Below the pieces are notes generated by a model, which did not search any database, was not told the DNA's origin, and was given only the letters and a program-made list of their open reading frames with translations. A DNA stretch of 64,000 nucleotides from Filosporella fistucella (taxonomy: Eukaryota; Ascomycota; Leotiomycetes; Helotiales), in NCBI GenBank assembly GCA_030077755.1, contig JAQJZZ010000001.1:1945117-2009116 (forward strand), in the 5' to 3' direction. A program made the translations under genes and the position numbers. Below, piece by piece: positions 9,698-64,000 of this stretch; positions within the stretch are counted from its first letter, which is position 1, and the number at the start of each line of letters is the position of its first letter.

Positions 9698-10186
9698 CTA
9701 TGCCAGGAAAAATCCCAGCGGTGCAACCAAGAAGAAAGCGATTCCGGGTATCAAGTGGTGCTTATATGCACCTTTCCTCCCATGCCAGAAAGTAGCAGCC
9801 GCATCTCCCCCAGCCACAAGTGCTGCCGAAAGCGTTACAACAGTACTCAACGCCTTCATTTCATTCATCCAAAGCAATGCCAACACTGAAACACCAAGTG
9901 CTGTTTCTCGTCCAGCAAAAGCAGTCATCCAGCCCACACCAGCTTCGAATTGACGACTTGGACTGAAGCTGGAGCTGCGAGGTTTGGTTTTCAGCCCATT
10001 GACCGATTCATTGTTACCTCGGATTGGAATGCCGAAGTTTGTGGCAAGCAGAACGGGATTAAAAATTGCGAAGATGCCCGTTGCTGTCATTGTGATACCG
10101 AGGAGACAGCATGCTGAGCGGAAAATGGGTAGGAAGATGTTGGAATGTGAGGTGATGAAGTCTTGGAAGGGGGAAATAGACGACAT
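9698..10186 (-). CDS. DUF4267 family membrane protein
   Basis: Intronless, 162 residues. Four hydrophobic segments are visible: about 20-45 (SACCLLGITMTATGIFAIF), 85-105 (FAGRETALGVSVLALLWM), 110-130 (STVVTLSAALVAGGDAAATF) and 143-162. The pattern of an A-G-R-E turn, a polar GD in the third helix and a small K-H-H loop is that of the DUF4267 proteins common next to fungal metabolic genes. No enzymatic role is established for the family. It sits beside the P450 at the cluster edge but reads in the same direction with 608 bp between, so membership is uncertain. Confidence 0.75.
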   Translation of the reverse strand: MSSISPFQDFITSHSNIFLPIFRSACCLLGITMTATGIFAIFNPVLLATNFGIPIRGNNESVNGLKTKPRSSSFSPSRQFEAGVGWMTAFAGRETALGVSVLALLWMNEMKALSTVVTLSAALVAGGDAAATFWHGRKGAYKHHLIPGIAFFLVAPLGFFLA

Positions 10187-10794
10187 TTTGAAAATTGGAG
10201 TATATGTTCGATATTTGTTTGCACTCAGGATGGATGGGGGATATCACCGTGATGAGACAATTCGGGGGGTTCTGATTCATTCAATTTATCCAGCGATAGA
10301 AACACTCCGGCAGTGATTCTAGGTAACTTTGTGCTGCCCAGAAGGAGTTGTAAGGTGGCAAGTCATGTCGGATCTTACGACCACTCGGCTTGCCTTCACG
10401 TAAATCCACTTTATTCCTACGCTGCGTATGTGGATACTCTGCATGCAGTGGAGACTGTCTTGACTGTGCCGCCTCACCTGCGGCATTTAGATCAGACCAA
10501 TGCATGCTTTAAATGCGGGTGGAGGGATCACTAAAGATTGACCGCCTGGCGTACTAAATTCCAGGGTCTGACCGAGCGTGCAGAAGTGCGGATTATCATC
10601 GTCGATACTTTTCGGACATGGGATTTTTAAATCTGCACCGAGGTGGGACATGGTGGATCCAGAAGGGGGAGGGGTAAATCTTTGCCAGTCTACCTGCTGC
10701 TTCACTTCGGTGTAGAAATTCCCCGCGGAAAGTGAAAATTTATCATTCATTTAAATCATAATATCTGAGGTAATGATAGTTGAGGATACTCTAT
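10187..10794. other. Intergenic region, no gene seen
   Basis: Promoter side of the DUF4267 gene and 3' flank of the P450. Small open frames at 10313-10534 and 10487-10750 have no recognisable domain and no splice context. Confidence 0.5.
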
Positions 10795-12589
10795 TTATAA
10801 ACTCTGCCCAATCTTCCTCCTCCGTACTCTAATAACAGCAGACATAGGAGGCAAAGCTGCGTCTCCAACAACTCCAGTCTGCGGCCGAGGACCATCATGC
10901 TCTATATCATAATGTATTGTTATATATGCCATCATAATTTTCAACAGCTGTACAGCGAACCATCTTCCAGGGCTGTCTCATTCATCAGTAACTCCCTGGA
11001 AGTGTTTTGAAACTTGACCTACCATGCATGACGACCGTAACCAAATCCCAGATATGTAGAGGTTGGCTGTCCTGCACTCAAGTCATCGAGATAAGATCGA
11101 GATTTTGAGGACACTGTCTTTTCAGTTTCCAAGTTATCTGCTTCCAATTTTGACTTCGCAGCACTTCTTGGCCGCTCGTCCTTCATTTTCACAAACCTGA
11201 AAGGGTCGTACATTTGAGCGTTCGGATAGAATCTCTCGTCCATATGGAGGCCAAGCACAGGTATGCCCAACCAACCACCTTTCGGGATATGAGTTCCGTC
11301 TGGGAGGTTGAGCCCCTCAGTCCGGAGTACCTCTTTGGTCAAACCTTTAATCAGAATTGGATGATACCGCAGACTTTCACGAATTGTACTGTCCAGAAGA
11401 GTCATTCCTTTGAATACTGCGCCATCATTCCAATCTCGATTGAGTTTAAGAGCATCCACCGCCTCCTCGCGCAGAGTTTCGTATGCATCCATTTCGATAG
11501 GACAACAGATGACATCGAGCAGAAGATTCGAAGCTTGAATGATGGTGGAGGATAATGCTGCGAATCCCTGAAAATGTGAGATTTGAGTTGAGAACCAGAT
11601 GCGGAGGCTTACTCACCATCAACATTATCCATTCAGCGAGCGTACTCGAGTCGGGTGTTCTTTGGGTCTTGCTCATTTTTGCAGACACTTTCGCGGATTG
11701 CATGATGAAATCATAGTTGTTCTCGCCCGCTTTCATCTGGTCTTCCTTGTCCAAAGCTGTCAATTGTCTCTTCACCTCTGGCACGAGAGCTTGTAAGGTC
11801 TTCCATCTATAGTAGCGAAGTGGCAGATTAAACAACGGTACCAGAAGTCCCTTCAAGACCCTTGGAAGCTCGCCAATGACAATTGTGCCCACTCCCATAG
11901 CAAGTACGTATTTTTGAAATGTAACGAGAAATCCTGGATCTAGCCCTAAAGGCAGGCCGAAGAACACTCGACTCATGGCGGGTACAATGATCTCTTGCAT
12001 ACTGCTGTATACATTGATCGATTTCCACTCGTCCTCATTTGCGCCAAATACTTCATCGGTTTTGCGTTTGATTTCCTCGTACATTGGAGCTTGTATCATA
12101 TCCAATTTCCTATTCAGACTGTCTCCAGCAACACGACCTAGAAAAAATGACGTAGAGTTGAACTCAACTCCTTTGTGAAGATATCGTACTGCATGACGCT
12201 CCTTTCGTATTTCGGCACTGGACATGACAGAATCCGGCTGTTCAGCAAACCACTTCACCATTTCTGGAGGAAGCATGACTTCTTGTTGGAAACTCGGCTC
12301 ATGTATTAGGAAGGGTCTCCCATTCTTGGAGTACTATGTAGACATAAGCTTGGGGTATTTTGTTATATCTCTCGCAATTGACTACCTGGTTATAGCCCTC
12401 GGAAAGAGTGGTTACTCCATTTCTCAGCTGCCTGATTCCAGCTCTCGTCGACTTGAATAACTCATTCCTTACACCAACGACCGGAATTGATTTGGGAAAA
12501 TTTATGGGACGATTGTATGACTGAAAAGCGACGAGATAAACGAACAGTAACAAAAACGGTAACACAAGCAAGAGACCATAGATCCCCAT
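10795..12589 (-). CDS. Cytochrome P450 (cluster P450 no. 1)
   Basis: Four exons, complement(join(10795..10972, 11023..11567, 11617..12333, 12386..12589)), give 547 residues. The N-terminal anchor is MGIYGLLLVLPFLLLFVYLVAF. The K-helix motif is ESLR (DSTIRESLRYHP), and the haem-binding loop FGYGRHACPGRWF is rebuilt across the last intron, with Cys489 as thiolate ligand. The I-helix region follows the third exon start (GFAALSSTIIQAS) and lacks the common AGT(T/S), which also occurs in other fungal biosynthetic P450s. It starts 1,382 bp from the divergent cyclase-glycosyltransferase, so the two could share a promoter. In enfumafungin-type pathways, P450s hydroxylate the triterpene skeleton and may cleave ring E; which step this one does is not inferable. 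Splice phases agree throughout. Confidence 0.92.
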
Positions 12590-13971
12590 ATCGAACCGCT
12601 ACTTCACCCATTGAAACAGCGAAAGGTTATAAAACTTTGTTAAGAATAGCTTGCTGGGCCTTTTGGATCAGAATAAATTTGTGGGACAGTATCGGACCTT
12701 GAGCTTTGAGTGGGACCTCTTTTTTTTTAACAGAGATCCCGAGATCTTGGAGCTGATGGTTGATTCTACAAATCAGGCATGTAAAAGGGTGCGGTTATCA
12801 AAGCTAGGAGCAAGTTAAGTGTTAGTTAGCATGCTGCCCCTCCGTACCGTACAGCTAACGACCAACGCTGACTCAGCTGACTACCCTGTAAGCGCTGCTT
12901 GGAAGCCGTTCGCCTAGCCGCCACAAGGGTTGTTATCTTCACTAAAGATAGTGAGCAACAGCCTGAATCAACAATCAGGTGTGGGAATCCTCGTTCCTCT
13001 TACTGTACATTCAACGCCACCCCACTACGACCCTCCTCTTCCGACCTCTCTTCTTCTAATGGTCAATTCTGCTGCAGCCGAGGCTCTTTTCGAACTTACT
13101 CCGTAGCAACACTACTTTAAAGTATGCAACGTATGAGTAGTTTATGTGCCAGCCGAAATTCCACTCTAAACACCTAACCTGCATCTATATTGTCCAAGTT
13201 CCTGAAATCCAGCTGATTGGGCACTTTTAGAAGCAAAACATGCTGTCCGAAAGGATGAATTCAAATCCGATTAGCTAGTTTCGTTACATGGTTTCTTGCT
13301 TTGGGATGAACGATAGACCTCTGCATGGATACATCCTCCCATGTGTCTTTCATGGATGAAATCTACTGGCTTTGATATGATCCTTGCTATCGATAGCCCA
13401 AGAAACGTTTCTTACCAGCCAATCCTGAAAATATAATCAAAGTAGCTAGTCTTTCTTTGTACACTGGTATCCTAAGGACTGCTAGTCAGCTCGTGGGAAA
13501 TCTAGTAACCATGATGCAGCAAGGTTCTCTTCACCCGACTTTCTGCACCTATCTAAGTGGTGGTTATTGCGGCCATGACCGAAATTCCACTTGTACGAAT
13601 AGAATGACCATGCAGAAGTAAGCCCAAACACTTCATTTTTCAACTTGGTACCGCCGTTGGACGTGGAACATCCATGTATAGTACATACTTGGGAAGGATG
13701 AATGCTCTACAAGTTGTATTCAAACTCGGACCTGTCTCCTTTCTTGGTCTTAACTCAGCCTTGCCGACTCGTCGCCCACCGATCATCCCTGAGTCTTTGA
13801 CTAAGGACATTACTATACGGATTAATCTAGTCGGTATAATTTTCTTCAGCCTTGCTCTTGAAGTGCATGTGATTGTTGAGACCTCAACGTAGTGAAAATA
13901 TTCCACCAAGGCTGACCAAACGCCTTCTTACACCTTGCGACTCAATTAAAAGATCCCAATAGCCATCTCCT
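12590..13971. promoter_or_regulatory. Divergent promoter region, P450 no. 1 / cyclase-glycosyltransferase
   Basis: 1.38 kb between two divergent cluster genes, with no convincing gene; open frames at 12899-13120 and 13640-13909 look random. It contains a near-palindromic GCTGACTCAGC at 12867-12877, whose core TGACTCA is a perfect Gcn4/AP-1 type bZIP site. A run of nine T lies at 12721-12729. Regulatory role is inferred only. Confidence 0.45.
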
Positions 13972-16900
13972 ATGACTAAGGAACACAAGATGCCACATGC
14001 AGAGGATCTTCAAGACCATGCTCGCATTGCCTTGGACAAAGCTATTCAATTTTCTTTCGACAATCAGAAGGAGGATGGCCACTGGGTTGCAGAGGTTTCC
14101 GCCGACGTTACGTTCACATCCGAATATGTTATGTTCAAATATGCAATGGGTCTGGATTTGAAGCAGGATGGAGAAGATCTCAAGAGGTGGTTGCTACAGG
14201 ATCAGAAGGAGGATGGTTCTTGGGCACTTGCACCCGACTTACCAGGCAATAACTCGACGACTACCGAAGCATACCTCGCCCTAAAGATACTGGGTGTGCA
14301 ATCAAACCACCCTCAGATGCTAAAGACACAAAGTTTCATGAAGAGCCATGGAGGGGTTGAGAAAGTTCGATTCTTCACTCGATTTTTCCTCTCAACTTTT
14401 GGACTCTTCCCATACTCGGCGATACCACAAATACCCGCAGAGCTGATCTTAATGCCTGCATCGTCACCGCTCAATATTTATACTCTCTCATCATGGGCTC
14501 GAAGCACACTGATACCCATACTCATATTCAGACATCACGAACCAATATACTCCCTTCCAAATGGTCGTAGTGCAAGTAATTCCTTCCTCGACGAGATCTG
14601 GTGCAATCCGGCAGACAAAAATGTCCCTTATGCCCCACCGATGTCGAAAATGTTCTGGGAGAAAGAGTACATAGAGCTTGGTTTCACGGCACTGGATAAA
14701 TTTCTCGGGCAGTTGAATTGGCTCAAAAGTTCCCCTCTTCGAGATATGTCAAGAAGAAAATGTGTTAGCTGGCTCTTGGAGCATCAAGAGAAAGATGGTG
14801 ACTGGGCTGGATTCTTTCCACCTATGCATGGGTCTATCTGGGCACTGATCCTCGAAGGCTTTCCACTCGAAGGCAAGGTCATTCGTCTAGGGTTGGAAGC
14901 AATGGAGCGTTTGACAATTTGTGATGAGCGTGGAAAACGAGTTGCACCAACTGTTTCGCCTGTTTGGGACACTGCGTTGATGATGAATGCACTTTGCGAT
15001 GCAGGGCTGGCATCTGATCCTCGTGTCACGAAAGCTGTAAATTGGGTCAAGGATCGACAGCTATTGAATGATCATGGCGACTGGCGAGTTTATAGCAAGA
15101 ATCAGATTCCAGGAGGATGGTCTTTCGAATACGCAAATACCTTCTATCCTGATGTCGACGATACTGCGGTGGTCGTTATGTCGCTTCTCAAGCATGACCC
15201 ATACTCCATCAATACCAGTTGCGTACTGAATGCCACTGAGTGGATGCTGGGCATGCAAAATCCAGATGGCGGCTGGGGAGCATTTGACACCAAAAACGAC
15301 AAACTATGGTTGCACAAGATTCCATTTAGTGACATGGATAGCCTTTGTGATCCAAGCTCAGCTGATATTACTGGAAGGCTGATTGAATGCTTCGGAATGC
15401 TTCTTACCCACAGAAAAGGATCTTTGGAAGTCGGCCTTCGCCAGAGGCTCATGCGATCATCTCAGAGAGGGTTACTCTGGCTGGAGGAAGACCAGCATTC
15501 TTGTGGAGGATGGTGGGGGCGATGGGGAAATAACTACAATTATGGCACTGGCAATGTGATGAGAGGTCTAGTATACTTTTCCGAAGACAATTTCCGTGTT
15601 CGTATCATGGTAGATAAGGCTACACGTTGGTTTGAAAAATGTCAAAATCCTGACGGTGGGTGGGGTGAGCATTTGAGGTCGTACAACGAGCCAGAATGGA
15701 TTGGAAAGGGGCCAAGCACTTCCGCTCAAACTGCATGGGCACTTCTTTCACTACAACCCTATCGACCACAGTCTGATCCTTTTATCGAGAGAGGAATCAG
15801 GTGGCTTGTTGGCAATCAATCTGTAGATTCGGAAAACGGATCTTCATGGCCAATCGATGTGTACACTGCGACAGGGTTTCCCAATGTTCTATATTTGGGT
15901 TACCCATATTACCACCACTTCTTCTCAATCATGGCATTGAAAAAGTATATTGACGGAAAAGTTCAGCCAAGATACGATGAGATATCTCTTCCTGTCCAAA
16001 TTCCTGCCGCGATGAATCAACCAAATATTCTTGTGATGGTAATTGGAAGTCGTGGAGACATCCAACCATTTCTGAGCATTTCTAGGACACTGAAAGAAAA
16101 GTATGGATATCGCATCAGAATTGCTACACATTCATTCCATCAAAACTTTGTCGAGGATCAAGGAGTGGAGTTCTTTGCAACGGGTGGAGATCCAGAAGCA
16201 TTCGCACGAGCGTTCGAAGATAATCCTAGTATCCTACAATCTGCAATTCGAGGGGAGTATCGGATTCTGTATCGGTCTTTCAATTCCATGCTGCAAAGAT
16301 TTTGGGAAGCAAGCATGGTGAATGACATCAGTCACTCAGAGAAAAAAAACATCCGCCCTTTCGTCGCGGACAGTATTGTCTCCAGCTATTCAACTCTGAC
16401 ACATATTCATTGTGCCGAAAACCTTCAAGTACCTTTGGTTCTAGCTTCACTACAGCCATTATTAGCAACAACTGAGTTCCCAAATGTTTTGACAATGTCA
16501 AAGCCCAGATTTACAACGGGTCGCAAGCTGAATGCTATGACGTCCTTCTTTTTGGATCTTATGTAAGTATCCCCCCGAAAAAGCGGCTCCTTAACTATGA
16601 ATATTAACTGAGTTTAGAAATTGGTGTGTTTTTGGTCCGTTCTTGAACCATCTTCGAGCTCAGGTGTACGGAATGGCCGCGGCCTCCTGGACATGGGCAA
16701 CGGTCGAGCTCCCAAAAATGAAGATCCCTCATATATGTCTATGGTCACCACACTTTGTCGCCAAACCAAGCGATTGGGACTCGAGCGTCACTATCGCGGG
16801 CTATGCATTTCCAGGGGACGTTGCTTATTCGGCACCAGAAGACCTGAAACAGTTTCTTACGTCGGAATGTAACTTGCTTCTCTTCTCTTTCGGTTCCGCC

Positions 16901-17863
16901 ACGATGAGAAACCCGAACCGATTGATGAAAATGATTTTTGAGGCCACTGCTAGATTGGGTGTCAAAGCAATCATCTGCCATGGCTCCACGGATATCGAAA
17001 GCAGTCTGAAGCTTCCAGAACACATTTACATGGCCGAATCAATTCCACATTCTTGGATTCTCCCTCAAGTTCATGGTTTTGTTCATCATGGTGGAGCTGG
17101 GCATACTGCCATTGGATTAAAATATGGCATCCCCCAACTCATCATGCCATTCTACCTGGATCAGAACTTTTGGGCAGCCAAAATTGAACAACTTCAGCTT
17201 GGTCCTGTACCATTGGAACATCAAACTGTTACCATCGAGCAACTCCATTGTTCCCTTCAAGATCTGTTGTCAAGTAAATACAGAGAAAATTGCAGGTCGA
17301 TGGCACACAAAGTTTCTAATGCTAGAGATGGTGCAGAGGTAGCTGCAGAGATGATTTCTCGTGTCCAAGGTTACGTCCACAATGCACCAAAATGTTGCAT
17401 CATCCCATCTCTGAGAGCTCAATGGAAGCACAAATCCGCTGGTCTCCTGCTATCAGGTGCTGCTGCAGCTTGCCTTGTTTCGAATGAAGTCTTGTATTGG
17501 TCAGATCTAGAGCTAAAAGGCATCTATACCTGGCCAGATCAAAAATCTATCGCAACCACTAGCATTATGGGACTTCTGGATCAATTGACCTCCTTTTTGT
17601 CGAAATTGTTCTCCTTGATGTTGTGGGTGCTGTCGCTTTTCACCAATCCTCTAGGTGAAAACGCGCGCAACGAAAAGAATAGCGAACTCATCTGCGACCC
17701 TCTGAGGAAAGCCAAGATGGAGCAAGGAGAGTATGATTTGAGATGGATCAGTCACGAGCTTGGGCTAAACGTAAGCGAAAAGATTGTGTACAATTGGAAT
17801 GCTTTGAGCACTGATGCATTTCATCGTAAGATGGGATTGCATGTTCAGGTTGAAGGAGTCTGA
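13972..17863 (+). CDS. efuA-like: Triterpene cyclase (SHC-like) / UDP-glycosyltransferase fusion, enfumafungin-synthase type
   Basis: Two exons, 13972-16562 and 16618-17863, give 1,278 residues. Residues 1 to ~665 are a squalene-hopene-cyclase-type domain: repeated QW motifs (QKEDGHW, QKEDGSW, QEKDGDW, QNPDGGWGAFD, QNPDGGWGEHL) and the catalytic-acid motif DVDDTA at Asp394-Asp397. From about residue 681 a sterol-glucosyltransferase-like GT domain begins (ILVMVIGSRGDIQPFLSI), with the sugar-nucleotide motif HHGGAGHTA at residues 1020-1028. A C-terminal tail of about 140 residues holds two hydrophobic stretches that may tether it to membranes. The intron falls inside the GT domain and the join gives LDLINWCVFGPF. 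Known fusions (EfuA, FsoA) cyclise oxidosqualene to a fernane-type skeleton and glycosylate it. The same chemistry is inferred here; skeleton and sugar are unproven. Confidence 0.95.
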
Positions 17864-18096
17864 AGTACTTGAAATTTTACAGGGAGCAGCTTGGATAATC
17901 ATACTTCCAAATTGAATGTAGCTGTAGACACGAATTATAGCTAATTAGAATAAAATATTTGGTGTTCATTTGCCCCTTTCCACCTCGCTTACAGCATCTG
18001 TTTGTAAATTCAACAAAGACATCTTATGGTACTGATTGATCTCGGGGAAGACAGGCGTTTGTCTTCTATCTAAATTTGCACCCGAAAATTCTCCAT
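17864..18096. other. Convergent 3' intergenic region
   Basis: Short AT-rich spacer between the fusion gene and the acetyltransferase gene, with AATAAAATA at 17949-17957 as a possible polyadenylation signal for the fusion gene. Confidence 0.4.
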
Positions 18097-19382
18097 TTAC
18101 AAAGCTGTCTTAAAACTGCGGATGAGATTGAATGGCAAAATCGGTTTACCCTCATCTCGTTGCATGGTCGGAAAAGTCCAAACTGGTGTTGTCCAGATAA
18201 GCCAAGCTAGCACCCAAACATATCCCATACATCTTCCTGTCTTACAAAGTACCTGAGATGTTCCACCAAGTCTTACAGCGGTAGCAGTGATTGCATCCTC
18301 CAACATAATTCCTAGCGTTTGCATGCAGAAGAACTGCATTGCTCCGCTCTGACTGAGAGACAGACCTTGAGTCATATCCGAAAACATATGGAAAATTCCT
18401 GAAACTGCAAAAGTACAGAAAATAAACAGATATCTGCCAATCATCCCACCTTTTCGTGCTCTTAGAGTGGCGTAAGTGATGAAATAAGCAATACTTCCAC
18501 AGCCACGACGTATCAACTGGTGGTAGAAAGTCCTATGGATAATTTAGATGCATTTCAAAAGATATCAGGACTGAAATACCCCCAAAAACGCCGAAGTGAA
18601 TAGGAGTCCTTCACAGACCCAAATACCGGCGGCCAAGCCTGAACAGGAGTAATGCCGGATGCAATTGCAACCATGGCAAATGAGGAGTAGACTGCTTGTA
18701 TTATGATGTATTGTACAGCCCAGTACCCAATGATACTGAAAATTCTCGTGTAGAACTCCTCTCTGGTAATCTCCGTGAGGCGAGCGAAGAATGAAATTCG
18801 GCCTTGAGAAAATATGACTGCATTGTCACTTTTCGGGGCAAGGCTGATGCCGTCCAAGATACAGATACAAATGGAGATTTTCACTGCTGAGTCCCTAAGA
18901 AATTGCCCTTTGGTTGGTACGTAATTGTTGTCGCTCGATCTGAATGGTGGAATGTTCTTGATGGGCCATTTGGTTGCAGGAAAGCGACTTTGAAGACTGA
19001 TGTCAGCACCGAAGGTGAGTTTGTCTACAGTGTTGTCGAAAAAACTAGAGTGCTGTTCTTTGATACGTTTCTCTGGATTATACAAAGGAACTGGATTCAA
19101 TCCACCAAGTGATGATGTTGGTCCACCTTCCTTGTAAGTCCATTTGTGTAGAAGGACAGTGTCGACGTATAGAATGTTCACATACACTCCTGCTGCTCCA
19201 ACGAACGCACGAGTGATGCTATTGTGTATCAATCTAACAAAGGGTAACTCCAAGTAGGTACAGAAAGTGACAAGAGGGAGACATCCCAGACGCAAGACTG
19301 AATCCCGTGACGTGAAGCCCAGCACGATGATCATGAGACCAAGCTGAAGTCCAACGAGGCTGACAGATGACTGGAAAGCCAT
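18097..19382 (-). CDS. Membrane-bound O-acetyltransferase, wax-synthase-like
   Basis: Two exons, complement(join(18097..18532, 18580..19382)), give 412 residues from the ATG at 19382 (MAFQSSVSLVGLQLG). The frame stays open to an ATG at 19520, which would add 46 mostly polar residues; I prefer 19382 because a hydrophobic segment follows at once, but this is not settled. The join restores RRFWGTFYHQLIRRGCG, matching the RRFW..(F/W)HQ motif of fungal wax-synthase-like acetyltransferases, and the candidate catalytic His lies in SGIFHMFSD. Several membrane helices are evident. Enzymes of this type acetylate hydroxyls on terpenoids (EfuD and FsoF in the enfumafungin and fuscoatroside pathways, as I recall), and the same role fits here. 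Transcribed toward the fusion gene. Confidence 0.85.
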
Positions 19383-19520
19383 GTCGCCTCGAAACAGAGG
19401 TAATTCTGGAGCTATATCGGACAGTATGGTGCTATACGTGTTGCGTTTGAAAATGTCGCGAACAAGGATTGAACTGGCTATAGTTGTATTTTCTGATCGT
19501 TCTGGAAACCAATGATACAA

Positions 19521-20796
19521 AGGGACAATTCGTGCTCGCGTTCACCCTTACCTGAGATAAGAGATATCTGCAATACTACATTGAGCTGGTTGTATGTGAG
19601 TTGACTCGGCATATTCACTCACCAATTTATTAGCTATCTGTCTGACTTGGTGTTATTGCAACCCTAGGCGAAGCCAACAATTCTACCAATGCATTACGAG
19701 TTGCATTGCATATTATTGATGAAGATATTTCTAGCACAGCGCCAATACGTAAACTCGACAAGGTGTACTAGGGGACTATGCATGAAAGCGTTGTCATCAT
19801 CTTTACCTACAAAGCCTGCGTGCATGAGTCTGCAGATCTTACCAACACCGAGGAGTATGAGAGAAATATCTTTAACAGATGAAGAAGGTCGTTAAGAAAG
19901 ATGACTTCCTGAAAGACGGTGAGTCGGCAATTAATTTCAATTTCCCTCATCGATAAGACTTGAATACGAGGAGCTCAACTTCATTCGCTGTAAAAATCCG
20001 AGCAAGACGCACTGGGCGTGGCAAGGAGGGGACTAATTGTACCAAGCTCCGGTGGTCAGCACTTCTAAAGCTGCATAGATGGGCCCCGAAAAACTAATTC
20101 AATTCCAAAGAGGCGGCCCCGAGTGGTGAGGTACGTTAAGATATGCTTGTAGGTAACTAAGTGGAGAGCTCAGCACTAAATAAAACGAGAAAGAAATCCT
20201 GTGCTAGTGACGACGGCGGCTCCCTCGCTCCCATCAGCCACCCGCCGAAAGGCCCTAGCGAGAATCGTGTAGTGAAGATCTTAGATCCGCTGTCAGCTCT
20301 TTTACCCGGTGCATCTGGAGGGCTGCCCATCCGACGTGGCGTTGCACTACTGCAGGCATAGAATTTCCAGGAATTAGTCCTGGTTCACCAGTACATGCCA
20401 TTTTGATAGAGACACACCTTGACTAGCAATCCCGAATTTTAGATTAGACCTAGCTACCAGTAGGCACTTGGTTGTCCAGGCAAACCTATCTTTCCCAGAA
20501 GTGAACTTGGGGTAGCGGAAACGGAGAGCTAATGCCGGTTGGAAGTGAACTATTTCGGCCCAGAAAATTTGTGATAGGTAGGACTTCCCAAAATTTTGTC
20601 CATAGAAAAATCACCTCGCCAAAGAGCAACCCAGACAGACCCTCCGAGCATCCTCAGACTCGCCATTCCTTTGACTGGCATTCAGGGAGTATCTCATGCC
20701 CCCTCAACTTGGACCACAAGACGTCTATTGCTTCGCCATTGACTTTTCCGGTCATCACATGACAGACTTTAATAGTCCTCCTCAAGAATCAAGAAC
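19521..20796. promoter_or_regulatory. Divergent promoter region, acetyltransferase / P450 no. 2
   Basis: About 1.3 kb without a convincing gene. Two near-identical elements occur, TGACTCGGC at 19602-19610 and TGAGTCGGC at 19920-19928, resembling the TGACTCAGC in the other divergent cluster promoter. Small open frames (19689-19895, 20161-20361, 20532-20762) show no domain. A possible upstream non-coding or coding exon of the acetyltransferase, ending at a GTAAGG donor near 19552, cannot be excluded. Confidence 0.4.
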
Positions 20797-22595
20797 ATGA
20801 TGGCTGGACAAATCTCTGGGATCCTCGGTGTATTGAGCTTGCAATCATTGACTCTGCTCGTCCTTTCTGTTGCAAGTCTTTTTTTGCTCACCTGGTGCAT
20901 TACATCCTGGACTGCACATCGTGCATTCGCCCTTTCCAAGGCGACTGCGCCAGGTCTGAAAAGGCCACCAACTCTTCCATATGCTGTTCCATTTCTTGGA
21001 CATGTCATTGAATTTATGAGAGACGGAAATGGCTTCATGTCAAGAACGGCGTAAGTTATCCTTACTCCCCTACTTATGGCAATCACTCAATAAAGAATCA
21101 GGCAATACTTGGATAGAAACATTCCTGTGCGGATCATCCTGCCAATCTTCTCTAATTATGTTGTCTCAGGTCCTGAGAATGTCCTGGCATACTTTCGAGA
21201 ATCTCACAATCTATCTACAACCACTCGAAGTGTTATTGTCATGAAAAATGCTTTCGGCTGTCCAGGTCACTTGGTTCACCAATTTGAGCCCAGAGTCATT
21301 CCTCTGGGAACAAAGCTGGAAGATAACATTGAACATCAGATTCTCCGTGCTGTCAACTCAGGTCTTTCAGGATCACATCTCGATGGACTTTCTTCCCGTT
21401 TCCAAGAAAATATGGCAGCCAAAATCAGGACAGACCAATCAGACGAGCTGTTTGATAACGAGTGGAAAGCACTTCCTGACATTAACGGTTTTGTCGAGAA
21501 TCGGGTATTTGAAGCTGCCGTGGCGTCTATGTTTGGAACATTTATGGTTTCATTGAATCCTACGCTTGCTGAAGATTTCTGGAACTTCAATAGATATATT
21601 GGGGCTTTGTTCATGGGGCTTCCATCATTTCTAAATCCAAAAGCAATCAAGGCAAGAGAGAAGATGGTTGACAATATCAAGCGTTGGTTGAGATTCACAG
21701 CAGAGAATTGCCCTGTAGAGAGCTTGGGAGACGTCGACTGGGAGCCGTACTATGGGAGTAAATTTACTCGTGAACGCCAAGTTCTGTTAACTAAGCGGGG
21801 AATTGTTGATGAAACTGCCAGAGCCGCTGAAAACTTTGCTTTCTTATGGGCGTAAGTACTCACCTTCATGATCCACATTATTAAGCTGACACAAACTCCA
21901 GTACAAATTCTAATTCAGTCCCAGCTGCAACATGGTTCCTGATAGAATGTCTCCATGATCCCAGTCTGAAACAGCGAGTTCTTGACTGTATCCCAGCCTG
22001 CATCGACGAAGCATCTTCTTTATCAGAACGACCACCAAAATTCGACATCGTAAAGCTTTGTGATGACCCTCTACTATCTTCAGTCTATGCGGAAACTCTA
22101 CGTCTTCGAACAGCAGTTTTGGTAGTCCGTCAACCAACCTCAGACGATTTTTCTTTTCGAGGCTGGCATATCAAGAAGGATGAAGTTCTCAGCCTCTCTA
22201 CCCGTACTGAACAAATGAATGAAGATATCTGGAACTCGAAACACCGCCCACTTGAAGAATTCTACTCTGATCGCTTCATCATTGACCCCAAAGAGCCCAA
22301 TAGTGGCCCCCTCAGAAATCAGAAAGTGAAGAGCAAAGATGGTAAACCTTACTTCGCTATGGACGGCTTGCGTGGATCATGGGTTCCTTATGGAGGCGGT
22401 AATCATCTCTGCCCTGGAAGACACTTCGCCAAAAGAGAGATTATCACTGCTACTGTTATGTTTTTAAGTGCTTATGAGATGGAAATGGTCGACGAAGGGA
22501 AGGGTAAGCCTGAGGTGGACATGAAATGTTTTGGTTTTGGAACCATGCCACCCAACAGGGCTATTCCGTTCCGAATCAAGAGAAGGGAGACATGA
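20797..22595 (+). CDS. Cytochrome P450 (cluster P450 no. 2), CYP7/CYP8-like fold
   Basis: Three exons, 20797-21050, 21102-21851 and 21902-22595, give 565 residues. It has an N-terminal membrane anchor (LTLLVLSVASLFLLTWCI), a proline-rich hinge (LKRPPTLPYAVPFLGH), an I-helix of the form ATNSNSVPAATW at the start of exon 3, the K-helix ETLR (VYAETLRLRT), and a haem loop VPYGGGNHLCPGRHFAKRE with Cys505. The N-for-T pattern in the I-helix is typical of CYP7/CYP8-related sterol and fungal P450s. Both introns are phase 2 and the joins are clean. It is tail-to-tail with P450 no. 3, which has the same first-intron position and phase. Expected to oxidise the triterpenoid; the position is unknown. Confidence 0.92.
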
Positions 22596-22964
22596 AAATA
22601 ATATTAGGCGATTTGAAATATAATAAATGGACGCCTCTTTAATTTGATATAAAACATACATGACTGTTCATTTGTAAACCGTGTTGCTACTACAGGCTTG
22701 ATGTGGGGAAAATTTGGGGGTTGGTGAGAATCTTTCAGCGGGTTTCAGCGTTCATCGTGGGGCAGAAGGCGGGGTAATTTATGCTCATAAATGGGCTGGA
22801 AGGGAAATCTGCTGTGAAACTTCAATACTTCACGCATTGAATATTTAAATGAATGGGCCTTGTAGACAACCACCAGAACTCTCATCGAAAATGTTATTTA
22901 ATTTTTTCAAGCAAACAATTCAGAATCCCAAAGCAGTTCAACACCTGCGCTCAGAACGTCATAA
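22596..22964. other. Convergent intergenic region between two P450 genes
   Basis: No gene. Contains the AT-rich 3' flank of P450 no. 2 (AATATAATAAATGG near 22617) and nothing else of note. Confidence 0.5.
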
Positions 22965-24794
22965 CTATTTGTCATCCTCACTTCTTCGCTTTATTCGCAC
23001 CTTAACATCGCTAGCTGGATGAGGAGCACCAGCTTCCATCCCCTTCTTCACATTCCAGGTCCCATCTGCATTCTTAGGACCCAGATACTCAATATCCCAA
23101 AAAGCGACCATCGCGGCCACAAAAGTCAATACTTCCCTCTCCGCAAATAACCGCCCTTTACACATACTGTACCCGCCTCCAAATGCATAAAGGTGTCTGG
23201 GCATTTCAGCTCTCTCTCTCTTTTCGTCTCGGGGGTCTTGGATAACGAATCGTCGGGAACTGAAGACCTTGGGCTGATCCCATAATCTGGGATCTGTGTG
23301 TGCTGCACCATTATGTATACATACGACATTGCCAGCTTTTAGGTTGTAGGTGCGAGGTACAGCTCCTGTTCCACGTAGGAGGGCTGCATCGGCAGGCGAT
23401 TCTGTGATATTGAAGTCTTCTTGGATGTACTTCTGTTCGACGCCTACAATATCTAAGCGCATGGTTTCAAGCCACGTAGACTTCGTCAACGGACATTGGC
23501 GAGAAAGAGCTGTGTGATTAAAAGATACCTCTCCGCTGGATAGAATCTTGACATGAGGTGCGACTTCTTGACGAATGGCAGCAAGGAGGGTGGGCGACGA
23601 GTAAGTATGGACGATAGTCCAAAAGGTAATAATATTAGCGTTCTGCCCAAGGTTAGATGAGATTGCCAGAGTATGATTTAATACAAACCGTATGAAGACC
23701 CCAAAGAAGACTTAGCAGATTCGCAATGGCTGCTTTCTGGACTTCCTCCCCGCCACTTCTCCAGGTTCTATGTTGCATCTTTGCAAGCTCACTAACATCA
23801 TTCATATCCTCCCAGCCCGGCACAGGCTCTCCTTTCTCATCAATAGCTTGGAAAGCACGAAACCAAGTTTCGATTGCTTTCTTTGACCGATTCAGGGCCG
23901 CCCGAGCATTTCTAATCTTGGAATTGAATGGCGGCATTCCAGTAAGAAGAAGCGGGAACTGAGAGTCAAAGGTGAAAACATCATCCATAAGTTCCGGACA
24001 TTGTTCAATAAGTGCTTTTCCAAACATTGCTGGAGTTGAAGCGCAGTATGCCCAACGAGTAACGAGACGAAAAAGATCTGCTTCAACTTCTTCGGCTTTT
24101 TCTTCAATCATACTGAGAGCACTTCTTTTCCAGGGATGCAAATTCGGACTGCCTCCTGCAACTGATGCGAACGAGAGGATAGATTTGCCTACAGCCGCTG
24201 CGGTGCGGTCAGATGCATCCATCATGGCAGCTTCAGTCATCAAGAGGTTCAGATTCGATGAGATGTGGGAATAAAGATCAGGGACAGTGGCTGTGGTACC
24301 CTCATCGCCGAAGCCATGTTTTGCAAGCCAATGTATCAATGGTTTATTGGAAAGAACTGTTGCCCGTTGTGCAAAGACTTGCTTAGAAAGGGATGGCATC
24401 AAAATCTGATAATGCTTATATCCAACAAGTCTGATTGCAAACGCTCCATCTCTGGTGTTGTCACTACGGACCCATTAGCAAACAATTGACAATATATAAT
24501 GACCTGTACGAACCGTGCATTGGTAAAGAGCCCTGCATTGTTTAAGATGTATGAAAATCCGTGTCCAATCCATGGGAACATATGAGGTAGCATTGGCGGC
24601 TCCTTGGGAGCATCTTGCTTCTGTTCTCTCACATACCTTGCTTCTGTCCAGAGTAGATAAAACAGAGCAAATGCTAATGTTACCACAACTAATGAGAGTA
24701 ACTGGTGGGCTTGAAATAGGTACCATAGATACCCAAGCATCACACCCCCCAATTTCTGTGCCATTGAGGTATCGAAAGAGCGCATCGACCGCAA
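22965..24794 (-). CDS. Cytochrome P450 (cluster P450 no. 3)
   Basis: Three exons, complement(join(22965..23642, 23689..24463, 24514..24794)), give 577 residues. It has a membrane anchor (LLSLVVVTLAFALFYLLW), a hinge KEPPMLPHMFPWIGHGFSY, an I-helix region at the second splice (LLSLLWGLHTNANIITFWT), an ETMR K-helix (WLETMRLDI), and a haem loop FGGGYSMCKGRLFAERE with Cys513; Lys replaces the usual Pro after the Cys. The first intron uses a weak donor GTTCGT; I chose it because it is the only one that keeps phase with DNTRDGAFAIRLVG and it has a GCTAAT branch site. Met1, Met4 or Met11 could be the start. It shares fold type and first-intron phase with P450 no. 2, which suggests an old duplication. 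Confidence 0.88.
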
Positions 24795-25729
24795 TAGGGA
24801 GCAAGCTGAATCTCAAGATGCTTACTCCGCAAAATAAGGTAATTTTCAAGCAGTCAATGGATTCCGTCTCTCGTTGCTGAAGTTTGGAGTGGAAACAGAT
24901 CGGCAGCGATAGGATTGGAAAATGGACCGGTCCGAAGAGCACTCAAGCAATGTTTTGCCATCGAACAGGTCGAATGTCTGACCACCCGCATAATCGGGGT
25001 TTGGGGGTGACTGGAGGATGGCGCTACAGTAGTCCAGCGGGCAGAACTCCATTACAGCTTACTCGTTGCAATGTTACAGGGATGCCGCATGGTAGCTAGG
25101 GAGGTACCTGGATGCCTTACAGGCACTGCTAAGCTCTGATCAGGACACTCTCGCACTATATTCCTTCTCCCTGTCCACTAAATTGGCGCCAGAAATCCTG
25201 CAGCGATAAGAAAATGGGGCTTTTTGTGAGCGCCGGGTTGTGGCGAATAAATCCATATAGTGTCCACTCAGCACTATTTTCGCTGCTGCAACTAACTCGT
25301 CTGGAGACAGGTCTCCGAATAGCTTCATTTACTGAGCAAATCGTTCGCCAGAAAACCAAAAAAATTCGTTGATCCTCTTTGGCAATCCACGCCTAACGGT
25401 AAGAAATTGACGTAAAAATCCCCGTTTATTGTAGACATTTCCATAAAATATATTTCACTCGGACAATGCGGACAGTTCAGGGTTGCCCACGTCCAATGAC
25501 AAGGAAAGGATGGCGGAGAGGCACGATTGTATGAGGCTACCCACAGAGCTAAAGAAAACAGTACAGTTGCATGGACGACCAGGGAAACCCTGGTGGATGG
25601 TGTAAGTCTCTTTGTAATAGCAACCTCTGAGAGAAGTAATCAAATACTGCCATCGAACAGCTTCATATCCTCAGCGTCTGACAACTTCGATAACAGTCCA
25701 CCCCAAAAAGAATATTCATCATTATCATC
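24795..25729. other. Divergent intergenic region, P450 no. 3 / AsaB-like gene
   Basis: No gene supported. Open frames at 25140-25328 and 25527-25763 lack features; the last overlaps the AsaB-like start in another frame. Leader of the AsaB-like gene (25690-25729) is CA-rich with ATCATTATCATC just before the ATG. Confidence 0.45.
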
Positions 25730-26689
25730 ATGGAAGCTTCAGCCACCACACAAAATCCTCTGAACTTTCAAGGGGACGTTGAGACAGTTTTCAATTACCA
25801 TAAGGATGTAAGTCCTGAGCAAGAAAGAGCCATCTATGGTACAGCTCAATTCTGGCGGAAACCCTATGAACAACGAAAGAGTATAGTTCATGATATCAGA
25901 GGCAATGAGAAGGACTTCAAACTTGATGTCCATGGCTTTGAATACCACAAGATTCCCTCCTCGCTCGACGACTTTTCAGATCCGGAGAAGATAAAGAGTA
26001 TCTACTACCCGGAGGTAGAGAGGTATCTCAAGGAAATGTAAGTTCCCGCTCTTCAAATATTGAGCACAACTGACCGCAAAAGTACTGGCGCTTCTCGAAT
26101 CATCTTCATCATACACGTCAACAGGACCCACTCTATCAAAGAAGTAGCAGCTAAAATTGCGGATGTTCCAGATGACTCTGAGAAACTTCTCGGTCTGGTT
26201 CCCCCCCTTCAACACGTCCACGTTGATCAGTCGTACGATGGCATAAACAATATGATTGATTACTGCGTTCCAGCAGAAGAAGCAGATGGTCTGAAGAAAG
26301 TCAGGCATTCAATCATCAATGTATGGAGGCCAATACGCACAGTCACGCGCGATCCACTTGCTCTTTCCGATGCTCGATCCGTGCCGGAGGAAGATCTGGT
26401 CCATGTCACAACACATTTGGCAAAGGGAAGGACCAACATGACCTGGGGAGTACTTCCGCCAGATGTCGACGAGAAAACGGGAAGGCAGGAAAAACATAAA
26501 TGGTATTGGTGTAGTCAAATGACGCCCGATGAGGTATTCCTGTTCAAGATACTGGATAGCAAGCTTGATGGGCGAGCGAGAAGAGATCCGCATTCTGCGT
26601 TCCACATTGACGGTACAGAGGGCGAACCAACCAGAGAAAGCATCGAGATGCGATGTATGGTATTCTGGGAAGCTGAACCAAAGGAGTAG
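25730..26689 (+). CDS. AsaB/CmcJ-like oxygenase (hydroxylase/desaturase family)
   Basis: Two exons, 25730-26037 and 26083-26689 (intron phase 2), give 304 residues, the normal length for this fungal family, which includes AsaB, CTB9 and GA4 desaturase. Visible signatures are GDVETVFNYH near the N-terminus, TGASRIIFI at the splice, HVHVDQSYDG (a candidate metal-binding H-x-D), IINVWRPI, MTPDEVFLFKILDS, and RESIEMRCMVFW near the end. Members are thought to be Fe(II)/2-oxoglutarate-type enzymes that hydroxylate or desaturate specialised metabolites; the mechanism is not proven for all. It follows P450 no. 3 divergently and could perform an oxidation or double-bond step in the cluster. Enfumafungin biosynthesis invokes a desaturase (EfuI), but I cannot confirm that it belongs to this family. 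Confidence 0.88.
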
Positions 26690-27110
26690 GCTCTGGCATG
26701 GAGCGAAATAAAATTGGTGCTTTTATACACTCGGGATGGTAGCAATTTCCATTATGCGATTGCGAATGCCCTCATTTGAGATTGCAATCAAAGTACGCCG
26801 GACTGGGCACGAACATAGCGCTGGAGTGGACGGGATTGATGCGGGTCCTAAGTTGCCCGACAGACGGGTAAGCCTAGGCAGGTATCTAGTGAACCATAAT
26901 CTATCTTTATTGATTGGCCAATGCAAAAGTGTCAAGAGTGGGATATCTAATCGCGCTATGAGAACCTCAAAACTCCAATTCGTGATTTGTTATCCCTACA
27001 TTATCTTGAGCCTCATAACCAATCTTTCGCCCCTCCAGTCATCGGTCCAGTCCTGTCCAAACCACGCCGCCTACTGAGGATTGTAACTTTGCCCTATTTT
27101 AACAGTAACT
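26690..27110. other. Intergenic region, promoter of the M20 gene
   Basis: No gene seen; an open frame at 26736-27077 has no domain. The M20 gene reads in the same direction as the AsaB-like gene. Confidence 0.5.
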
Positions 27111-28582
27111 ATGCAGATTCTGATAGAACTTGTTGACGATGACTATATCGATATCTCAACGCGGGAGGAAGAGCTACATAAAAAATTGTCAGCAGTGAAG
27201 AACAGTACGTGTCGTTCGATGATCCTCCTGTATGATACTAAGGAGGTCACAGCCCAGAAAACCAAACCACTTTTCGACACAAAGTATCTAGATTTTGTCT
27301 CGGGCTACATAGACTCTATCAGTGAAATTCTGAGGCCAATTAGTCTGAGAATTCACGATAATCCAGAGTTGAACTATAAGGAATTCATCGCCCATGAGAC
27401 TCTCACGAAATTCCTCGAAACGAGAAAGGGTTGGACCGTGACACCATCAGCCTATGGCATTGAGACTGCTTTCATTGCTGTATTTGACAGTGGGAGAAAA
27501 GGACCAGTCATCAGTTACAATGCTGAGTACGGTGGGTACAACTCCTTCTCCTGCTAATTGGAAATTGACGATGTTAAGATGCCCTGACTGGAATCGGCCA
27601 TGCTTGCGGGCACAATCTTATCGCCATTGCCTCTGTGGCTGCAGCACTAGCTTCTGGAGCAGCAATAGAAAAATTCTCTATGTCCGGGAAAGTGATACTC
27701 TTCGGAACTCCTGCCGAAGAAGGCGGCGGCGGAAAAATCAAGCTGCTTGATGCCGGCGCATATTCTGATCATAAAGTAGACATCAACCTTATTTCCCACC
27801 CAGGGAAGGTGCAAGATTCTGCTCTCGTCAGGACCAATGCGTATTTGAATTTGAAGATTGAGTATTTTGGAAAGGAGGCCCACGCAGCTGCTGCACCATG
27901 GGAGGGAATCAATGCCCTGGATGCAATCATCACAGCATATAACGCTCTCAGCGTTTTGAGACAGCAAAATATGCCAGGCGATATTATTCAGGGCCACATC
28001 ACAGATGGTGGCAGTGCCCCCAATATCATCCATGCATATACGGCTGGAATTTTCGTAGTTCGAGCGCTGAGCAAGAAGCGATTAGCAGTTCTGAAGGAGA
28101 AGGTATTCAAGTGCTTCGAGGCTGGTGCTGAAGCAACAGGCGCAAAGTTGAAGATCACGACGATGATGGGATACGACGACAACGTCCCAAACAAAGCGAT
28201 GGGGCGTGTTTGTCGAGGCGCGATGAACGCTCTGGGATCTAATATTGCGGAGGAGGAGATTGACTTGATCCGAGGTGCGACTCAAGCAAGTACTGACCAA
28301 GGAAATATCAGTTATGCCATGCCAAGTCTGAGTTTGGGATTCATGATTGAAAGTGAAGATGGGCCTCACAGTCCCGGCTTTACGGCTGCAGCGAGGACAC
28401 GGCAGGCTCACGTTGCAGCATTGAGAGCAGGAAAAGGGCTGGCAGTAACTGGATTAGAGGTGTTGACTGATAACCAGCTGTTGAAAGCCGCGAAGAAGGA
28501 ATTCGAAGAGATGTTGAAAGAGCAAAACTTTCAAGAGCCAGTTGCTATGTATTGTAAACGCAAGTATGGGCTGCCCAGATAA
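27111..28582 (+). CDS. M20 family amidohydrolase/peptidase (M20D2-like)
   Basis: Exons 27111-27204, 27253-27531 and 27579-28582. The first intron (27205-27252) is 48 bp, so it keeps frame whether spliced or not; a GTACGT donor, a GATACTAAG branch site and a CACAG acceptor argue that it is spliced (458 residues) rather than retained (474). The second intron is certain because it rebuilds NAEYDALTGIGHACGHNL. Metal-ligand motifs are GHACGHN and GTPAEEGGGGK; the dimerisation domain and the C-terminal TDQGNISYAMPSLSLGF and HSPGF follow. Family members hydrolyse amide bonds of small N-acyl or dipeptide-like substrates in a di-zinc site. No amide is expected in an enfumafungin-type glycoside, so this may be a neighbour rather than a pathway enzyme. 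The N-terminal ~45 residues are atypical. Confidence 0.85.
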
Positions 28583-29684: not shown

Positions 29685-31761
29685 ATGGCGACACCCAGGG
29701 CTCCAGCCTATGGTCCCCTAGGCTATTCGAACTTGGATGAAGAAGCAACGGCATATCGAAGTCCTGCTCCATTTTCTCAGCCATTCCCCCACTACGCCCC
29801 AGATGATGCAGATATTTCTGCCGCGTATGAATTGCACGATCGGAGACCAGATACACTGAAGCATAAACAAAGCGAAAACACCGTCTACTCTGGGACCCTA
29901 TTTCCAAGTCCAAACAATAAGTCATCACGTATGTACTTCCTCGAGCCATTCACCTTGTATCTATCGCCTTGTATTCCATTAACTAATGACCACAGAATCT
30001 GACGAGGACCCATTTCTCCGCGATCACTTCCATTCTGCGAATACCTTCCATACTGCCAATGCCTTCGTTCCATACAAAGACAACACAGCTAGACAATTGA
30101 GGCACATCCTCATTGCGAGCTCTGCGCGATGGCTGATTACTGCTACCCTATGTGGTGCATATATTCTTGCTACTCGAATTTGGCAAAACAAAGGGGCGCA
30201 AAGTGAGGGGCAGAAGAAGACATACAATACGATCACAACTGGAATAAGTATTGCCCTGGGTTTAAACATCGCTAGTGCATTCAAAGATATGGCTCTGAAC
30301 ATGCGATGGCCAATTCTTGCAGGGCGTACGAGAAACCTGGTAGAGGCATGTATAACTTATATCAACCAACATGACTATTGCTGACTTGATTAGCTGGATC
30401 TCATTCTTAACGCCGATAGTTTGACGAAACTTGCGAAATTGGCGTTCATTGCCCCAAGACCAATGGTAATATTTGCGTGTGTGTTTTGGCTACTTGCCAA
30501 CATCGTATGTGTTTTGAAGCTTTGCAAGCGGAAACCTTGTACTGACAAGAGCAGCTCGCTCAAGCTGGAATAGCCATGCTCTCCCTCACATATAGCTTCG
30601 ACACAGATAGAACTACGGTCCAGATGGCAAGGGGGAACGTCTCAATTCCAAATATGTCACACTTCTTTCCCCAAGCGGGCGCGCCAAATTCGAACCCTTC
30701 AATTCAAGATGAAGAATATGCAGCACACATGTAAGCAATTCCTATGCTGTCAATCTCCCAGTGACTAACCTGGCAGGTATGGCGAGTACGGATATCAGTT
30801 CTCAGTCAACGAATCTATCTACATGCCCAAATCCGGCGCTATATATCAACCCCGTGGTGCCATGATATGGTCGGACGTGGCAAACAAGAAGATGAGCTTT
30901 GTCTTCTCTGACTCCCCGAAAGGCGAGAAGCTGGGAGAATTTTCAGTATATACAAGCCGAACCATTGATATCAAGTATAGCTGCGACTCTCACAAAGTTA
31001 CTGCGAATGGCACAGGAACGTCTGATTTCCTAGTAGTAGAGGATATTGGCCAGGTCATACTGCCTCAGACAGTGCCACGGTCGCTCACATATTTTACGAA
31101 TGCTAGCCACACATGCGATGGAAGCCAGCGATGCTCCGTAGTGCAGGCATTTGAGTCCTCGGATACTGATCCGTGGTACTATCGATGCAATATAACGCTT
31201 GGCCGCACTGAAAGCGATCCATACAATATATCTTTCGTATCAGATTATATGGCTCGAATTGCCACAGCTTCTATTGCACAGGTTGGATACACAGACTACA
31301 GAGGTGTTGCCTCCCAAATATATCCACAAGATTGCCCATGGGGCATACCACTCCGTGGAAACACGACTGCAATGGGCAAAACTATGGCAACTTTCGGACT
31401 TGGCTCTATAGCAGGGGCTACCATATACAATCCTTATGTTTCGTATTTTGGAGATGCCCCTCAAGCTGGAGTGTATCTTCACGTCGGCCACCCAAAGTTC
31501 TTCTATCTCATCATCTGCCTGATAGCTGGATGCCATCTGACGTTCATCATCGTGGTGGCTATCCTCACAAATCGTGTTGTGGTTGGGCCTGACGGACACC
31601 TTTCAATGAGCTTATTGATGAGGCCTATCGCAGACGCTTTGCATGGAATCAGCAATGGTAAAGAGAACAAACCTTTCAGGGATGCGAAGAGGAACACTCT
31701 AATCATCTATGAGAAAGACCCTATGAGAGGGAAGTGGAGTTTGAATATGGTCAAACGCTGA
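29685..31761 (+). CDS. Fungal multi-pass membrane glycoprotein of unknown function
   Basis: Five exons, 29685-29928, 29996-30339, 30394-30504, 30555-30730 and 30777-31761, give 619 residues. The end of exon 2 (GTAGAG donor after RTRNL) is the least certain join; it is the only one found that gives RNLLDLILNADSLTKLA in phase. The first ~110 residues are polar and probably cytosolic. Hydrophobic segments follow: ARWLITATLCGAYILATRI, TITTGISIALGLNIASAF, MVIFACVFWLLANI, AGIAMLSLTYSF, and near the end FFYLIICLIAGCHLTFIIVV. Between the last two lies a ~300-residue loop with many N-x-S/T sites and cysteines, which suggests an exposed, glycosylated, disulphide-bonded domain. I do not recognise a named family; such proteins recur in ascomycete genomes as hypothetical. 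Confidence 0.75.
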
Positions 31762-35779: not shown

Positions 35780-35829
35780 CCTTCACCTCTTCATGCTCTA
35801 GTGTGCGCAAGAGAGATAGTTGAAAGCTG

Positions 35830-63903: not shown

Positions 63904-64000
63904 GGGTTAGGGTTAGGGTTAGGGTTAGGGTTAGGGTTAGGGTTAGGGTTAGGGTTAGGGTTAGGGTTAGGGTTAGGGTTAGGGTTAGGGTTAGGGTTAG
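63904..64000. repeat. Telomere, (TTAGGG)n
   Basis: Uninterrupted GGGTTA/TTAGGG units, about 16 copies, run to the last base. The G-rich strand reads 5'-to-3' toward the right edge, the orientation of a right chromosome end. No degenerate units occur in the array; it starts abruptly after AAT. Confidence 0.98.

What the first reader, a model, noticed from the sequence alone, without database searches (positions are those of the whole stretch)
10795..28582. Subtelomeric enfumafungin-type triterpenoid glycoside gene cluster
A cyclase-glycosyltransferase fusion, three P450s, a wax-synthase-like acetyltransferase and an AsaB-like oxygenase lie together within ~16 kb (plus an M20 amidohydrolase). 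The set matches the core of enfumafungin/fuscoatroside pathways (fusion + P450s + acetyltransferase), whose products inhibit beta-1,3-glucan synthase. But no dehydrogenase (EfuE type), terminal reductase, regulator or transporter is visible next to it, and an M20 hydrolase is added. The product may therefore be a new congener. The enzyme architecture is known; this gene set and its place ~36-53 kb from a telomere may not be described.
Basis: partly seen in the sequence, partly recalled or inferred. Interest (0 to 1): 0.85.

Follow-up and report, generated by a model that had tools for sequence, protein, structure and literature searches.

The report
Subtelomeric enfumafungin-type triterpenoid gene cluster
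Near the end of a fungal chromosome lies a compact, intact set of six genes that probably makes an acetylated triterpene glucoside related to enfumafungin, the parent of the antifungal drug ibrexafungerp; it is a new member of a known kind of gene cluster.

Summary
Window 10,795-26,689 carries six intact genes in three head-to-head pairs: P450a/cyclase-glycosyltransferase fusion, MBOAT_2 acyltransferase/P450b, P450c/Fe(II)-2OG oxygenase. The fusion's best relatives are proteins of Oculimacula yallundae (74%) and Rhynchosporium secalis (72%); its cyclase lies in a supported group that also holds the published Hypoxylon rubiginosum fernane-cluster cyclase. (1) The 'AsaB-like' oxygenase scores well above cut-off in NCBI's family CmcJ_NvfI_EfuI, named after EfuI, which forms the enfumafungin hemiacetal in vitro (PMC12667498). 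The set thus matches the efu core better than fso; orthology to EfuI is untested (best listed relatives 44%). (2) The M20 hydrolase is a widely conserved gene, 84% identical in Rhexocercosporidium; in O. yallundae its relative is on another contig. It is most likely a neighbour. The contig ends in TTAGGG repeats 37 kb beyond the oxygenase. EfuA and FsoA were not among the listed hits, the glucan-synthase (self-resistance) search did not complete, and there are no expression or product data. Verdict: a genuine enfumafungin-type cluster, a new member of a known kind.

The parts
10795..12589 (-). P450a, cytochrome P450, 4 exons, 547 aa; weak hits to varied solved P450s; role unassigned (third P450, EfuB/FsoB-like only by elimination)
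   Evidence: models; PF00067; heme motif; own-genome search
12590..13971 (.). 1,382-bp stretch between the divergent genes P450a and TC-GT (presumed shared promoter region)
   Evidence: length from the models; no word shared by the three divergent stretches above chance
13972..17863 (+). TC-GT fusion: squalene-hopene-type cyclase fused to a sterol-glucosyltransferase-like UGT, 2 exons (intron 16563-16617), 1278 aa
18097..19612 (-). MBOAT_2 / wax-synthase-like O-acyltransferase, 3 exons, 472 aa (FsoF/EfuH1-like role inferred)
20797..22595 (+). P450b, CYP7-like P450, 3 exons, 565 aa; candidate 2-alpha-hydroxylase (FsoD/EfuH2-like, inferred)
22965..24764 (-). P450c, P450 nearest to a sterol 12-alpha-hydroxylase, prostacyclin synthase and CYP7A1 among solved structures, 3 exons, 567 aa; candidate E-ring-cleaving P450 (FsoE/EfuG-like, inferred)
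25730..26689 (+). Fe(II)/2-oxoglutarate oxygenase of the CmcJ_NvfI_EfuI family, 2 exons, 304 aa; H149, D151, H273 and R293 invariant in the alignment
27111..28582 (+). M20 amidohydrolase, probably a conserved neighbour gene and not a pathway gene; three-exon model with introns 27205-27252 and 27532-27578, 458 aa
   Evidence: a 53-bp version of the first intron broke the frame
63904..64000 (+). telomere repeat (TTAGGG)n at the end of contig C1

Best explanation
A six-gene subtelomeric cluster in an unnamed, probably helotialean ascomycete that makes an enfumafungin-type acetylated triterpene glucoside. Inferred order, taken from the published pathway: the cyclase domain folds 2,3-oxidosqualene into a fernane-type alcohol (fernenol, isomotiol or a relative); one P450 hydroxylates C2; the MBOAT enzyme acetylates that hydroxyl; the glycosyltransferase domain of the same fusion then glucosylates 3-OH; a second P450 cleaves the E ring; and the EfuI-family oxygenase oxidises methyl carbons (C24/C25), giving a hemiacetal or a related oxidation pattern. 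The product is expected to inhibit beta-1,3-glucan synthase. Shown here: gene content, open frames, families and catalytic motifs. Not shown: every chemical step, expression and product.
For: Fusion with DVDD and UGT motifs. Cyclase part best matched by squalene-hopene cyclase and GT part by sterol 3-beta-glucosyltransferase among solved structures. Window sequence in a 34-row group (SH-aLRT 100) of fungal fusions and close relatives that holds H. rubiginosum, whose cluster is published as fernane-type. Acyltransferase and three P450s, two of them nearest to sterol hydroxylases and prostacyclin synthase. Oxygenase in CmcJ_NvfI_EfuI, with its presumed metal ligands and arginine invariant over 31 sequences. 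Three head-to-head pairs with 965-1,382 bp between. The four tailoring enzymes have only distant other hits in the own genome: P450a 31% over its longest hit and up to 40% over short ones, P450b up to 37-39%, P450c up to 36%, acyltransferase 27% over 271 aa and 42% over 58 aa. Pathway order and EfuI function: PMC12667498, parts 1-3 of 5 read.
Against: No efu or fso reference protein was available, so orthology is untested for every gene. The oxygenase's best listed relatives are 44% identical, and none of the 120 listed (of 311) is from O. yallundae or R. secalis, although both have the fusion; the family is broad. In the tree the outgroup rows did not form one side of a branch, and some rows of the 34 have no GT domain annotated. 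No regulator, dehydrogenase, reductase or glucose-oxidase-type gene was found in the ORFs scanned. No promoter word shared above chance. In A. oryzae EfuI gave only traces of enfumafungin (PMC12667498). No expression or metabolite data; glucan-synthase search unanswered.
Confidence: 0.75

Rival explanations
1. The cluster makes a fuscoatroside-like or other seco-fernane glucoside, and the oxygenase performs a different oxidation (another carbon, or a desaturation) than EfuI does; it was recruited independently from the large AsaB/NvfI/CmcJ family.
For: Best listed relatives of the oxygenase are unspecific family members at 44% and below; one search lists 19 further matching stretches in the own genome at 26-49% over partial lengths, so the family is large here; no O. 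yallundae or R. secalis relative in the 120 listed although both have the fusion.
Against: Same NCBIfam family as EfuI, same kind of gene set, and a place next to the P450/acyltransferase block.
Confidence: 0.35
2. The M20 hydrolase is a pathway enzyme that adds a step unknown in efu/fso.
For: It starts 421 bp downstream of the oxygenase on the same strand; no closer own-genome copy than 48% over 269 aa or 56% over 129 aa.
Against: Relatives at 72-84% in Rhexocercosporidium, Phialocephala, Mollisia and Cadophora, and at about 60% across many other ascomycetes; the O. yallundae relative (VTL71DRAFT_7391) is on a contig of another length than its fusion gene (VTL71DRAFT_9167). It is in tandem, not in a head-to-head pair.
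Confidence: 0.1
3. A silent or decaying subtelomeric cluster with no product.
For: Subtelomeric place; no regulator family seen in the Pfam scans; no expression data.
Against: All seven modelled frames are open with intact motifs; dinucleotide ratios at the cluster are like those of the neighbouring genes, unlike the last 8 kb.
Confidence: 0.15

Closest known systems
efu cluster (enfumafungin, Hormonema carpetanum)
   Same: TC-GT fusion, three P450s (EfuB, EfuG, EfuH2), acetyltransferase (EfuH1) and the Fe(II)/2OG oxygenase EfuI, as named in PMC12667498; the window's oxygenase is in the family that bears EfuI's name
   Different: accessory genes of efu (efuJ from passages of PMC9476466; dehydrogenase, reductase, regulation and transport genes recalled) were not found beside this cluster; identities to efu proteins could not be measured
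fso cluster (fuscoatroside, Humicola fuscoatra)
   Same: TC-GT fusion, three P450s, acetyltransferase (PMC12667498)
   Different: fso has a glucose oxidase gene fsoC, and no such family was seen here; the paper's list for fso names no 2OG oxygenase, and this cluster has one
Hypoxylon rubiginosum fernane cluster (PMC8403587, passages)
   Same: TC-GT fusion (cyclase part 66% identical), two P450s and an acetyltransferase
   Different: it has an O-methyltransferase and FAD-dependent enzymes; the window has a third P450 and the oxygenase
Fusion proteins of Oculimacula yallundae and Rhynchosporium secalis
   Same: closest relatives of the fusion, 74% and 72%
   Different: their surroundings could not be read here; no relative of the window's oxygenase from either is in the 120 listed hits
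CmcJ/NvfI/AsaB oxygenases (PDB 7EUS, NvfI 7DE2)
   Same: aligned HxD, distal His and Arg; 7EUS E = 8e-57, NvfI 1e-13
   Different: substrate of the window's enzyme unknown

Membership tests
enfumafungin-type triterpenoid glycoside cluster | squalene-hopene-type cyclase fused to a C-terminal glycosyltransferase | tested here: met
enfumafungin-type triterpenoid glycoside cluster | DXDD motif in the cyclase | tested here: met
   DVDD at residues 394-397, invariant in 12 of 12 aligned sequences
enfumafungin-type triterpenoid glycoside cluster | cyclase in the clade of EfuA and FsoA themselves | tested here: inconclusive
   inside the group of fungal fusions with H. rubiginosum (39 named hits that I chose out of 120 listed of 1019, plus the window); EfuA and FsoA were not available
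enfumafungin-type triterpenoid glycoside cluster | clustered acetyltransferase and P450s for the C2 and E-ring steps | tested here: inconclusive
   families met; orthology to FsoD/E/F or EfuG/H1/H2 not testable without their sequences
enfumafungin-type triterpenoid glycoside cluster | product is an acetylated seco-fernane glucoside | not testable with these tools
   needs expression and LC-MS/NMR
efu subtype (hemiacetal) | Fe(II)/2OG oxygenase of EfuI's family | tested here: met
   NF041278 CmcJ_NvfI_EfuI 216.7 bits, cut-off 80; alignment of 31. A broad family, so this is not orthology
efu subtype (hemiacetal) | oxygenase orthologous to EfuI | not tested
   no sequence named EfuI among the 120 listed hits
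efu subtype (accessory genes) | dehydrogenase, reductase, regulator, efuJ-like gene next to the core | tested here: inconclusive
   none among 50 ORFs scanned with Pfam (46 of the 66 plus 4 others), but genes in short exons or without a Pfam family would be missed; passages on the H. rubiginosum cluster say that beyond the core genes no other gene is shared with efu
fso subtype | glucose oxidase gene fsoC | tested here: not met
   no such family among the same 50 ORFs or the seven modelled proteins

The most novel reading that the evidence does not exclude
A helotialean enfumafungin-type pathway in which a divergent CmcJ/NvfI/EfuI-family oxygenase, not found in the nearest relatives that have the fusion, was added independently of EfuI and makes an oxidation pattern not yet known for this drug class.
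Probability: 0.3. Interest if true: 0.6.

Novelty: new member of a known kind. Interest (0 to 1): 0.4.

Why it matters
Enfumafungin is the parent of ibrexafungerp. According to PMC12667498 the native fusion EfuA gave little fernenol and no glucoside, and EfmA gave nothing, in A. oryzae, so new natural fusions and a further oxygenase of EfuI's family are useful parts. The closest relatives of the fusion lie in O. yallundae and R. secalis, known (recalled) as cereal pathogens; I met no description of such a cluster for them in the searches that I ran (of which only 42 named these genera) or in the passages of PMC5118889. That raises a testable question about glucan-synthase inhibitors made by plant-associated helotialean fungi.

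Tried and rejected
Shared promoter word among the three divergent stretches: one shared 8-mer against 1.8 expected from 200 first-order resamplings, and none of 9 to 12 letters (0.15 or fewer expected); no signal. M20 as a pathway enzyme: disfavoured by its conservation and by the O. yallundae location. ORFs 30,769-31,758, 1,405-4,548 and 41,345-42,568: no Pfam family; translated and not followed. Kuhnert et al. 2018 (PMC6237087) is not held; what I say of its gene list beyond the passages of PMC9476466 and PMC11371599 is recalled. The search for PDB code 7EUS listed one paper, on AlphaFold predictions in general, not opened. Passages on echinocandin self-resistance (PMC10296638) prompted a look for glucan synthase (PF02364) in the own genome: eleven identical requests did not complete, so nothing is claimed.
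Full report
What is there. The window is the last 64 kb of contig C1 (2,009,116 bases) of a 45.77-Mb, 19-contig genome and ends in 97 bases of TTAGGG repeat. Between 10,795 and 26,689 lie six intact genes in three head-to-head pairs, with 1,382, 1,184 and 965 bp between the starts: P450a/TC-GT, acyltransferase/P450b, P450c/oxygenase. An M20 hydrolase starts 421 bp further on. The spliced frames are open and carry their catalytic motifs. Splice sites are predicted, not observed.

The core enzyme. Residues 16-661 match squalene-hopene cyclase (TIGR01507, 550.6 bits; PDB 1GSZ, E = 4e-122). Residues 688-1111 match sterol 3-beta-glucosyltransferase (PDB 5XVM, E = 1e-39). DVDD at 394, HHGGAG at 1020 and PFYLDQ at 1041 are present; the DVDD, the HHGGAG and the D-Q pair are invariant in 12 aligned sequences. 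Of 1019 database hits the 120 best were listed; by my count of the Pfam column 22 of these 120 carry a C-terminal UGT-type domain (PF00201 or PF06722). By score the best are O. yallundae (74%) and R. secalis (72%), then lichen-forming fungi such as Caloplaca and Xanthoria and Aspergillus ellipticus at 55-58%. A quick maximum-likelihood tree of 39 named hits that I picked from the 120, plus the window, puts the window with those two (SH-aLRT 100) inside a 34-row group (100) of fungal fusions and close relatives; a few of those rows have no GT domain annotated, several rows have long branches, and the outgroup did not form one side of a branch, so the root is unsure. H. rubiginosum, whose cluster is published as fernane-type (PMC8403587, passages), is in that group. 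EfuA and FsoA were not among the listed hits.

The tailoring enzymes. The acyltransferase is MBOAT_2. P450b is nearest among solved structures to CYP7A1, P450c to a sterol 12-alpha-hydroxylase, both also to prostacyclin synthase; P450a has only weak hits to varied P450s. The three P450s are 20-23% identical to one another, and their other hits in the own genome are distant. The oxygenase scores 216.7 bits against NF041278 CmcJ_NvfI_EfuI (cut-off 80); H149, D151, H273 and R293 are invariant in 31 aligned sequences; that these are metal and 2-oxoglutarate ligands is inferred from the alignment to NvfI and 7EUS and general knowledge of the superfamily. Its best listed relatives reach 44%, and none of the 120 listed of 311 is from O. 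yallundae or R. secalis. The own genome holds 19 further matching stretches at 26-49%, so the family is large in this fungus and family membership alone is not an EfuI assignment.

What it probably does. PMC12667498 (parts 1-3 of 5 read; passages) reports for fso/efu enzymes: cyclisation, C2 hydroxylation (FsoD), acetylation (FsoF), then glucosylation by the GT domain, which needs the acetyl group, then E-ring cleavage (FsoE); EfuI converts the seco glucoside to enfumafungin in vitro, but only traces formed in A. oryzae. The window has a family-level counterpart for each of these steps. Giving C2 to P450b and the E ring to P450c is inference only: the acyltransferase stands next to P450b, and the names EfuH1/EfuH2 suggest that acetyltransferase and C2-hydroxylase genes are neighbours in efu; no map of efu was seen.

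The M20 hydrolase. It is 84% identical to a Rhexocercosporidium protein and 72-83% to proteins of Phialocephala, Mollisia and Cadophora; these genera do not appear among the named fusions listed. In O. yallundae the relative VTL71DRAFT_7391 lies on a contig of another length than the fusion VTL71DRAFT_9167. The own genome has no other copy above 56% over a partial length. It is best read as a neighbour, though a recruited neighbour is not excluded.

The flanks. Fifty ORFs were scanned with Pfam: 46 of the 66 listed (the other 20 overlap the modelled cluster genes) and 4 more. To the left lie an MFS exon, a DUF4267 ORF and aldose-epimerase-like exons; to the right a HET gene, a rhamnosidase-like gene, an MFS-like ORF below the curated cut-off, a rhamnogalacturonan lyase, a sugar transporter and a fungal-rhodopsin gene. 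No regulator, dehydrogenase, reductase or glucose-oxidase family was seen; short exons and genes without a Pfam family would be missed.

Limits. No expression, no product and no reference efu/fso sequences were available. The glucan-synthase request did not complete (eleven calls). That nothing is described for O. yallundae or R. secalis rests (listings) and passages of PMC5118889, which reports one terpene cyclase gene in Rhynchosporium without saying which kind.

Judgement. A genuine, intact enfumafungin-type cluster; new member of a known kind. Its main points of interest are the oxygenase of EfuI's family without close relatives and the fusion's nearest kin in cereal pathogens.

Noticed in passing
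60001-64000 (window): The last 4 kb before the telomere has GC 0.33, TA/AT 1.11 and (CA+TG)/(AC+GT) 0.90, in the direction expected of RIP-mutated repeats, with strong G skew.
   Followed up: partly
7233-8345 and 9701-10243 (window, - strand): MFS transporter exon and a DUF4267 ORF immediately left of the cluster; they might serve the pathway or be unrelated.
   Followed up: no
34040-35782, 37657-39453, 46011-47759, 50491-51516 (window): HET-domain gene, alpha-L-rhamnosidase-like gene, rhamnogalacturonan lyase and sugar transporter between the cluster and the telomere.
   Followed up: partly
1405-4548 (window): Long acidic, serine/proline-rich ORF without Pfam match; from memory it recalls the C-terminal part of a Rif1-like telomere protein, not tested.
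   Followed up: no
G000 C11:204850-205887: The only other squalene-cyclase C-terminal match reported in this genome (147.8 bits); presumably the lanosterol synthase, not tested.
   Followed up: no
database hits: Many hits from metagenome sources are about 855-880 aa long, near the length coded by the window's exon 1 (863 aa, before its single intron); this suggests a conserved intron position in the fusion family and unrecognised fusions in metagenomes.
   Followed up: no
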